Below are positions 10,411 to 11,899 of a DNA stretch of 45,885 bases, in pieces. Positions within the stretch are counted from its first letter, which is position 1, and every line of letters begins with the position of its first letter. The position numbers and the translations under genes were made by a program. Below the pieces are notes generated by a model. That model was not told the DNA's origin, did not search any database, and saw only the letters and a list, made by a program, of their open reading frames with translations. The stretch spans positions 1 through 45,885 of the forward strand of contig JANXRM010000293.1 in NCBI GenBank assembly GCA_025353015.1. Reading direction: 5' to 3'. Origin of the DNA: Hyphomicrobiales bacterium. Lineage in GTDB: Bacteria; Pseudomonadota; Alphaproteobacteria; Rhizobiales; Hyphomicrobiaceae.

Positions 10411-10651
10411 GCGATGTCCTTCCCGGTCGGTTGTCGGCACGGCCGATCACGTGTGATCGCACACCGATTTTTGCACAGCGCTTTCAATAGCGACGCTGGT
10501 TGAGCCGGAATACTATGCTTGGGAGGTGCTGCCGTCCAGCAGCTCGCATCCTCGGTATTCCCGGGAGACGTCCGCCAGCGATGAGCGCTTGTACGGCCTC
10601 GCTAACTCGGGCACGCTACGCTTACTTCCAAGCCATTTCCGCGAGGGCCGC
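10411..10651. promoter_or_regulatory. Divergent promoter region, Liv operon and GrdB-like gene
   Basis: A 241-base region between two genes reading outward, so it should carry both promoters and is the natural place for shared control. GGAAGGA precedes the leftward start and GCGAGGG the rightward one. I could not identify a clear operator or a confident -35/-10 pair. Confidence 0.5.
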
Positions 10652-11899
10652 ATGGCGCGCTTGACGGACTTCGACGATATCGGCCGTGACTATTACCAGT
10701 CGATGGCGATGCCGAGCTTTGCGACTCTGCGTTGGGCTCCGGCGAAGCCGGTGCACCAATCACGCATCGCTATGATCTCGACAGCGGGACTGCAGCGGCG
10801 CGGCGACCGCCCGTTCGCCGTCGACTCAGCCGACTATCGCCTGTTGCCGGGCGACGTGCGTGCCGCCGACCTCGTGATGAGCCACATTTCCACGAATTTC
10901 GATCGCACCGGATTCCAGGAGGACCACAACGTCGTGTTCCCCATTGACCGCTTGAACGAGCTGGCGGCCGACGGCGTGATCGGGTCGGTGGCATCGATCC
11001 ATTATTCGTTCATGGGCGCGACACCGCCGGCGAAACTGGAGGCGACCGCCCGCGCGCTGGCAGGACTCCTGAAGCAGGACCGTGTCGATGCGGTACTGCT
11101 GGTGCCCGTCTGACCCGCTTGCACGCGCGCCGTGGGCGCGCTCGGCCACTATCTGGAAAGTGAGGGCTTGCCCACCGCAGGCTTCAGCCTTATTCGCCTG
11201 CACACCGAAAAGATCCGACCGCCGCGCGCGTTGTGGGTACCGTTCGAACTCGGCCGCCCGCTCGGCGTGCCGAACGATGCTGCGTTCCAAACGCGCGTGT
11301 TGAAGGCGCTGCTCGCGACCCTCGCCGAACCGGCTGGGCCAGTGCTGGCAGACTATCCCGAAGAAGCGCCAAGCGGCGGAACCGGCGATATGAGCGGCAT
11401 GGCCTGCCCTATCATCCTGGATCGGCCTGCCGCCGCCGAGGAGACGCTGGAGGCTTCGGTGCTGCGGGAAATCCGCCAGCTGCAGCCCTGGTATGACCTC
11501 GCACGCGAGCGGCGGCAGCGGACCACGTTCGGCAGCGCTGGCCTCGACATCGAGGGCGTCGCGGGCTTTCTCGCGCGCTGGCTCGATCCCAGTCCACCGG
11601 TGAGCCCGCGACCCGACCAATCGCCGGAAGCCATGTTGAAGCTCGCGGCCGAGGACCTCAAGGCCTTCTATTTTGAGGCCATGGCCGGCCAACCTCAACC
11701 GATGACCGGCCGGGCAGCGGCAGATTGGTTCTGGGGTGAAACCTCCGCAGCCCGGTTATTCGCAGCCTTGCGTGAGCGCTGTATCGCCGAGATCGATCCT
11801 GACCGCCAGTTCATCGGTCACAACCTGCTGGTGCCACGAGAGCAATGGACCCGTTTCGGCATCACCGAGCGGTGGTGGCGAGCGCCCGGCACTACTTAG
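10652..11899 (+). CDS. GrdB/PrdB-like reductase with in-frame TGA, probable selenoprotein
   Basis: Two open frames (10652-11110 and 11114-11899) lie in the same frame, separated only by the TGA at 11111-11113. Read through, they give one 415-residue protein with selenocysteine at position 154, in the sequence VLLVPV-U-PACTRAVGALGHYLE, a UxxC redox motif. The flanking blocks PGDVRAADLVMSHISTNFDRTGFQEDHNVVFPIDRLNELAADGVIGSVASIHYSFMG and TEKIRPPRALWVPFELGRPLGVPND match the selenoprotein B family of glycine/sarcosine/betaine/D-proline reductases, whose clostridial members carry selenocysteine (or Cys) at this place. About 140 extra C-terminal residues (LQPWYDLARERR onward) are not part of the clostridial PrdB core; their role is unknown. 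The ATG at 10652 follows GAGGG. A hairpin lies directly behind the TGA. The alternative is a Cys-to-stop mutation making a pseudogene, but both halves are otherwise intact. Confidence 0.82.
11125..11141 (+). promoter_or_regulatory. SECIS-like hairpin directly after the in-frame TGA
   Basis: GCGCGCC (11125-11131) and GGCGCGC (11135-11141) form a perfect 7-bp stem closed by a GTG loop. The loop begins 18 bases after the TGA. Bacterial SECIS elements are short hairpins inside the coding frame immediately 3' of the UGA, with a G at the start of the apical loop, recognised by SelB. A lower CCG/CGG pairing (11115-11117 with 11143-11145) is possible across an uneven internal loop. In GC-rich DNA such a stem can arise by chance, so this is supporting rather than decisive. 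Confidence 0.55.

What the first reader, a model, noticed from the sequence alone, without database searches (positions are those of the whole stretch)
10652..11899. Probable uncharacterised selenoprotein: GrdB/PrdB-like enzyme read through an in-frame UGA
Two adjacent frames in the same phase are separated by a single TGA (11111-11113). The residues around it form VPV-U-PACTRA, a UxxC redox motif at the position where selenoprotein B reductases of glycine/sarcosine/betaine/D-proline carry selenocysteine. Both flanks keep strong family blocks (SHISTNFDRTGFQEDHNVVFPIDR; PRALWVPFELGRPLG) with no frameshift. The protein has about 140 further C-terminal residues absent from the clostridial core, and no GrdA, GrdE or PrdA partner is nearby, so this would be a stand-alone aerobic version of an anaerobic Stickland enzyme. 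A gene caller would split it in two.
Basis: partly seen in the sequence, partly recalled or inferred. Interest (0 to 1): 0.9.

Follow-up and report, generated by a model that had tools for sequence, protein, structure and literature searches.

The report
PrdA-less PrdB-like selenoprotein of aerobic bacteria
By every sequence test available this gene is read through a stop codon with the rare amino acid selenocysteine, and it belongs to an uncharacterised branch of a selenium-enzyme family best known from anaerobes, found here in bacteria that appear to breathe oxygen and often right beside their selenocysteine-making genes.

Summary
Confirmed. Window 10652-11899 (+) encodes one 415-residue protein through an in-frame UGA (11111-11113). 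Of 51 distinct full-length members (this one included) 48 have UGA at exactly this codon; the other three have Cys, in genomes where no selB or tRNA-Sec was found. The own genome has selA, selB, selC and selD. selB or selC is present in 38 of 40 genomes with a UGA member, against 3 of 36 without. A fixed-position hairpin 11 nt after UGA is kept in 53 of 55 UGA members but 9 of 29 Cys members. Both sides of the UGA are under purifying selection. The naming needs correction: it scores 97.6 bits to PrdB (cut-off 300), no PrdA was found in 40 genomes with UGA members, and it forms its own clade with an extra helical domain without a Pfam or PDB match. It is not new as a selenoprotein: 'PrdB' selenoproteins were counted in the Sargasso Sea and GOS surveys, probably including this clade. 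New here: the clade, the domain, the missing PrdA, hosts with haem-copper oxidases, and location within 2.5 kb of selB/selC in 14 of 32 genomes. Function is inferred only: Sec154/Cys157 probably reductively cleaves a C-X bond of a small substrate.

The parts
10652..11899 (+). CDS of the PrdB-like selenoprotein, 415 aa with Sec154, stop TAG
10643..10647 (+). GAGGG, Shine-Dalgarno-like, ending 4 nt before ATG 10652
   Evidence: sequence
11111..11113 (+). in-frame UGA = Sec154 of the U-x-x-C motif (Cys157 codon 11120-11122)
   Evidence: TGA in 48 of 51 full-length members
11125..11141 (+). SECIS-like hairpin: stem 11125-11130 with 11136-11141, apical CGUGG 11131-11135
   Evidence: at least 5 of 6 pairs in 53 of 55 TGA members against 9 of 29 Cys members
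10706..11374 (+). PrdB/GrdB-like alpha/beta core, about residues 19-241
11435..11851 (+). C-terminal all-helical domain, about residues 262-400, no Pfam or PDB match found

Best explanation
SHOWN by sequence: the gene encodes a selenocysteine protein. UGA 154 is decoded as Sec with the help of a hairpin directly downstream and the cell's SelA/SelB/SelC/SelD. It belongs to a monophyletic, nearly always Sec-containing clade of the PrdB/GrdB superfamily, found here in Proteobacteria, with its own C-terminal helical domain and without PrdA. INFERRED (about 0.35): it is a cytosolic reductase. The Sec154 selenolate attacks an electrophilic atom of a small substrate, as is proposed for GrdB-type enzymes; Cys157 resolves the adduct to a Se-S bond; glutathione or thioredoxin re-reduces it. 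The missing PrdA/GrdE-type partner means either that the substrate needs no Schiff-base activation or that the C-terminal domain takes over binding and activation. The confidence given is for the shown part.
For: Codon: 48 TGA and 3 Cys of 51 full-length members. The Cys members L102, L105, L108 form one nested clade; their genomes G532 (83% complete), G742, G538 have no selB over cut-off and no tRNA-Sec in the upper score group. Co-occurrence: selB or selC in 38 of 40 genomes with a TGA member against 3 of 36 without, Fisher 1e-15 (tabulated by hand; genomes are not independent). Own genome: tRNA-Sec and selB on C209, selA C439, selD C284, and two further TGA-bearing members on C64 and C312. 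Hairpin. Selection. Linkage: gene 36-2417 bp from selB or selC in 14 of 32 genomes with full-length TGA members (distances), and within 160 bp of a SelD-type gene in 8 loci (AIRS domains in 7 of the near genes scanned). Core residues shared with PrdB: H78, D84, D91, P97, position 154, C157, E169, P191, R192, G201, Q213. No PrdA. GST_N domains in 6 of 78 near neighbours against at most 2 of 124 distant ones (Fisher 0.06 if 2), a weak pointer to glutathione.
Against: Two genomes (G658, G407) carry a TGA member with no selB/selC found; G407 is 77% complete, but G658 is rated 100%. The window's own UGA region folds no better than shuffles (z 0.79) and energy tests across members were weak, so the hairpin case rests on the fixed-position comparison, chosen after seeing those folds. 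No Rfam family matches. In one pair, L099/L100, the C-terminal dN/dS was 0.50. No protein-level evidence exists. The mechanism rests on homology and on neighbours that differ between lineages; three of the six GST loci are one family of genomes. Fold searches gave no informative relative.
Confidence: 0.95

Rival explanations
1. General thiol-redox or peroxidase protein: the U-x-x-C pair works like a thioredoxin-type centre reducing disulfides or peroxides rather than a metabolic substrate.
For: UxxC spacing; COX1-bearing hosts; GST domains in 6 of 78 near neighbours.
Against: No thioredoxin-fold match in the lists seen, which excludes nothing; core residues shared with a substrate reductase (H78, D84, D91, E169, R192, Q213) are kept; several diverged paralogues per genome (3 in G000, 4 in G257) suggest different substrates.
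Confidence: 0.25
2. Helper of selenium metabolism: a Sec protein encoded with the sel genes that delivers or reduces selenium for SelD.
For: Within 2.5 kb of selB/selC in 14 of 32 genomes and next to a SelD-type gene in 8 loci.
Against: Genomes with selB and selC but no TGA member exist (G236, G403, G410); Cys versions occur where no selB/selC was found; in the other 18 of 32 genomes, and in the window, the gene was not seen beside selB/selC.
Confidence: 0.15
3. True D-proline reductase (PrdB) or another Stickland reductase subunit.
For: Best NCBIfam hit is PrdB; groups with PrdB in the midpoint-rooted tree.
Against: 97.6 of the required 300 bits; PrdA query 0 of 40 genomes with controls ringing; motif PVUPxCT against AGUGTCH; extra domain.
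Confidence: 0.05
4. Not a selenoprotein: pseudogene, sequencing error, or two separate genes.
For: A gene caller splits it; the local fold is unremarkable against shuffles.
Against: TGA at the same codon in 48 of 51 members, purifying selection downstream, hairpin, sel co-occurrence.
Confidence: 0.01

Closest known systems
PrdB, Sec subunit of D-proline reductase (NCBIfam TIGR04483)
   Same: Homologous core of about 200 residues, TGA or Cys at the same codon, UxxC spacing, 26-33% identity to three annotated PrdB.
   Different: Below the equivalog cut-off; no PrdA found; PVUPxCT motif; about 177 extra residues; Proteobacteria with COX1; often beside sel genes.
GrdB/GrdF/GrdH (PF07355, TIGR01917/01918)
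   Same: Matches positions 199-345 of the 347-position GRDB profile over the gathering score (43.3 of 22).
   Different: Under the TIGR and NF cut-offs; UxxC only in the window protein, not the UxxCxxC described for GrdB in PMC13188914 (passage); PrdA/GrdE-type partner not found.
'Proline reductase PrdB' selenoproteins of the Sargasso Sea (42) and GOS (235 Sec, 110 Cys)
   Same: UxxC selenoproteins called PrdB in marine metagenomes (passages of PMC1088965 and PMC2398784).
   Different: The passages seen do not describe a separate clade, the extra domain, missing PrdA or sel linkage; that they include this clade is inferred, not tested.
FarB, GrdB-like protein of the proposed fluoroacetate reductase (PMC10838667, passages)
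   Same: Suggests that the superfamily can act on bonds other than C-N (C-F).
   Different: Anaerobic Synergistota; encoded with a GrdE-like partner.

Membership tests
Bacterial selenoprotein | in-frame UGA conserved as Sec/Cys across homologues | tested here: met
   48 TGA, 3 Cys of 51 full-length; 7 TGA, 26 Cys of 33 short members
Bacterial selenoprotein | SelA, SelB, tRNA-Sec, SelD in the genome | tested here: met
Bacterial selenoprotein | SECIS-type hairpin just downstream of UGA | tested here: met
   53 of 55 against 9 of 29; but no Rfam match and no excess stability in the window alone
Bacterial selenoprotein | selenium found in the full-length product | not testable with these tools
   needs mass spectrometry or 75Se
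Pfam GRDB PF07355 | score over gathering cut-off 22 | tested here: met
   43.3 bits, profile 199-345 of 347
PrdB (TIGR04483) | score of at least 300 bits | tested here: not met
   97.6 bits
PrdB (D-proline reductase) | PrdA proprotein partner in the genome | tested here: not met
   PrdA query 0 of 40 genomes, two control records ring; PF09338, which recognises PrdA, also 0 of 40 but no control rang in that search; own genome 92% complete
GrdB/TIGR01918 | score of at least 65.45 bits | tested here: not met
   47.1 bits
GrdB | UxxCxxC motif | tested here: not met
   UPACTRA
GrdB | GrdA partner | not tested
   no genome-wide GrdA search was made

The most novel reading that the evidence does not exclude
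A self-sufficient, oxygen-tolerant Sec reductase that cleaves C-X bonds of small substrates with glutathione and without the PrdA/GrdE-type partner of the characterised Stickland reductases, and that is a main client with which the Sec-coding genes travel and are kept in aerobic Alphaproteobacteria.
Probability: 0.3. Interest if true: 0.8.

Novelty: new variant of a known kind. Interest (0 to 1): 0.58.

Why it matters
PrdB/GrdB enzymes are known as multi-subunit Stickland reductases of anaerobes. A PrdA-less Sec version in genomes with haem-copper oxidases asks what selenium chemistry such bacteria keep a whole recoding apparatus for. Its position beside selB/selC/selD in many genomes, and the Cys versions where no selB or tRNA-Sec was found, offer a handle on why the Sec trait persists or is lost. 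Practically, ORF callers split it and annotation files relatives as PrdB or 'selenoprotein B family', so its abundance and function are obscured.

Tried and rejected
Rejected: pseudogene or sequencing error; relaxed downstream half; PrdB proper. Led nowhere: PDB sequence search (no match, and best E 0.07 to an unrelated chain); Foldseek and VIA-align on the whole model (best Z 7.7, rmsd 3.6 over 133, a mixed list of alpha/beta proteins) and on the C-terminal domain (no E below 2, best Z 4.0); a family missing from those lists is not excluded. Rfam on the UGA region (none). The energy test was weak: synonymous-shuffle z mean -0.91 in 48 full-length Sec members, marginally below Cys members overall (p 0.04), and within-gene rank showed no difference (p 0.85). 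I then scored the fixed-position hairpin, a choice made after seeing the folds. PF09338 search had no ringing control, hence. GST: a first count with an HMM built from the near GSTs was biased and was repeated with Pfam, where it is borderline. TctC genes seen beside the gene are not enriched: 2 of 78 near, 8 of 124 distant.

Dropped rows and selections: the 36 comparison genomes are 16 with matches but no TGA member and 20 without matches taken as first listed, of 334 such. and one search left out G407. One search counts a member once per distinct 60-nt stretch from the codon on, and rows with a gap or no coverage there were skipped. One search used 34 of the 39 slices (L031, L089, L097, L100, L106 left out: N, stop codons, odd lengths). 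One search used 78 of the 81 near genes (three L031 genes with N left out); one search used 124 of 140 sampled from 202 distant genes (left out by hand). Thirteen of the 30 loci were fetched because gene and sel genes share a contig, so selD counts there are not a rate.

Full report
What is there. Window 10652-11899 (+) is one frame interrupted only by TGA at 11111-11113; read through it gives 415 residues with Sec154 in PV-U-PACTRA. It sits alone on the + strand between a branched-chain-type ABC transporter cluster (binding protein, two permeases, ATPase) and an SBP_bac_5 gene, both on the - strand. A standard ORF list splits it.

Is the UGA Sec? Five lines agree. (1) Eighteen of 18 related loci from the named-genome collection carry TGA at this codon. 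With the loci of the order and class searches there are 51 distinct full-length members, the window's included: 48 TGA, 3 Cys. Among 33 short members 7 are TGA and 26 Cys, a sample weighted to one order. (2) The own genome has selA (558 bits), selB (428) and selD (301), each over its cut-off, and tRNA-Sec with anticodon TCA. (3) In 76 genomes the tRNA-Sec scores fall in two groups (62.6 bits and above, 53.5 and below); I took the upper group as true, since the family's own cut-off of 47 also admits other tRNAs. selB over cut-off or selC is present in 38 of 40 genomes with a TGA member and 3 of 36 without (Fisher 1e-15; relatedness not corrected). Exceptions: G658 and G407 one way, G236, G403, G410 the other. 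The three full-length Cys members are in G532, G742 and G538, none with selB over cut-off or upper-group tRNA-Sec. (4) A hairpin starting 11 nt after UGA, with apical CGU (once GGU), has at least 5 of 6 pairs in 53 of 55 TGA members against 9 of 29 Cys members. The stem differs between subfamilies (GCGCGC, CCAGAC, TCAGTC) while position and loop stay. That a G at the start of the apical loop suits bacterial SECIS is recalled. Plain folding energy discriminates weakly. (5) dN/dS in the three closest pairs is 0.09-0.11 upstream, 0.03-0.13 just downstream and 0.12-0.16 in the C-terminal part; one further pair reaches 0.50 there. Mean identity over 741 pairs is 0.54, 0.62 and 0.34.

What family? 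PF07355 (43.3 of 22) puts it in the GRDB superfamily. It fails the PrdB equivalog cut-off (97.6 of 300) and the selenoprotein-B subfamily cut-off (47.1 of 65.45). Aligned with annotated PrdB from Terrisporobacter, Enterococcus and Peptoclostridium and six relatives it keeps H78, D84, D91, P97, position 154, C157, E169, P191, R192, G201 and Q213; two of those PrdB have TGA at the aligned codon and the Enterococcus one TGT. In a FastTree of 88 core sequences, midpoint-rooted, the 51 full-length members form one clade (support 0.81), apart from PrdB, from the PAUGLCN forms and from the PVCHQ forms; the three Cys members are one group within it. AlphaFold gives pLDDT 89 overall: an alpha/beta core with Sec154 just before a helix that follows a strand, and a separate helical domain at about 262-400 (alone pLDDT 91.7). 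Neither has a clear PDB match, and the latter no convincing Pfam match.

Partners and hosts. A PrdA query matched 0 of 40 genomes that have TGA members (own genome included), while both control records rang. Thirty-two of 33 genomes searched have COX1, so the hosts probably respire oxygen. In 14 of 32 genomes with full-length TGA members the gene lies 36-2417 bp from selB or selC (distances): G036, G430, G449, G463, G497, G588, G590, G602, G655, G680, G691, G699, G734, G768. With fragmented assemblies this is a lower bound. Eight loci have it within 160 bp of a SelD-type gene, for example L109, where it follows by 16 bp on the same strand. The window's copy is not so placed. Elsewhere neighbours vary: TctC, TauD, Ldh_2, CoA-transferase and cyclase genes. 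GST_N occurs in 6 of 78 near neighbours against at most 2 of 124 distant ones, borderline.

How it works. For glycine and sarcosine reductases a Sec attack on the substrate after Schiff-base activation is described, and C-F cleavage is proposed for FarB (PMC10838667, passages); the like for betaine and D-proline is recalled. I infer a similar attack here, with Cys157 resolving and glutathione or thioredoxin as reductant (about 0.35). A redox-protective role (0.25) and a selenium-metabolism role (0.15) remain open.

Known or new? PMC1088965 counts 42 PrdB selenoproteins in the Sargasso Sea, PMC2398784 235 Sec and 110 Cys in GOS, and the 2026 review PMC13188914 lists D-proline reductase under TIGR04483 (passages of all three seen; also passages of PMC9312934 and PMC12013277). 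Six searches of the held open-access library (for most papers I saw only the listing) showed no title or abstract on a PrdA-less aerobic clade; most subscription papers are not held. Hence a new variant of a known kind.

Noticed in passing
G000:C209, C524, C25, C309 (L001, L002, L009, L010, L016): The own assembly holds two different tRNA-Sec genes and what looks like a second, contig-split selB, while the same-genus genome G257 lists one selB over cut-off and one upper-group tRNA-Sec; either a second Sec locus or a co-binned relative.
   Followed up: partly
G658:C98 (L103): Full-length TGA member with 5 of 6 hairpin pairs in a genome rated 100% complete in which no selB over cut-off or upper-group tRNA-Sec was found.
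   Followed up: no
L109:10772-11947: Two tandem paralogous 190-residue proteins directly after the PrdB-like gene in a selA-selB-selC-selD stretch; the first matches 2OG-FeII_Oxy_3 weakly.
   Followed up: partly
L023:8776-11218: Two diverged tandem copies of the selenoprotein gene, both with TGA, in an uncultured Rhodospirillaceae assembly.
   Followed up: partly
L031:1-5896 and L032:6028-12083: Conserved cluster in two gammaproteobacteria-labelled records: an AMP-ligase-like gene (by eye), two conserved genes, a Cyclase-family gene, the PrdB-like gene, then TauD; a candidate pathway that could reveal the substrate.
   Followed up: partly
L127:5013-9485: Peptoclostridium gene annotated prdB with in-frame TGA and no prdA annotated within 5 kb, an Ldh-family oxidoreductase nearby; a gene of one BLAST cluster, Ldh_2 in L026, also precedes the PrdB-like gene in L022, L024 and L026.
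   Followed up: no
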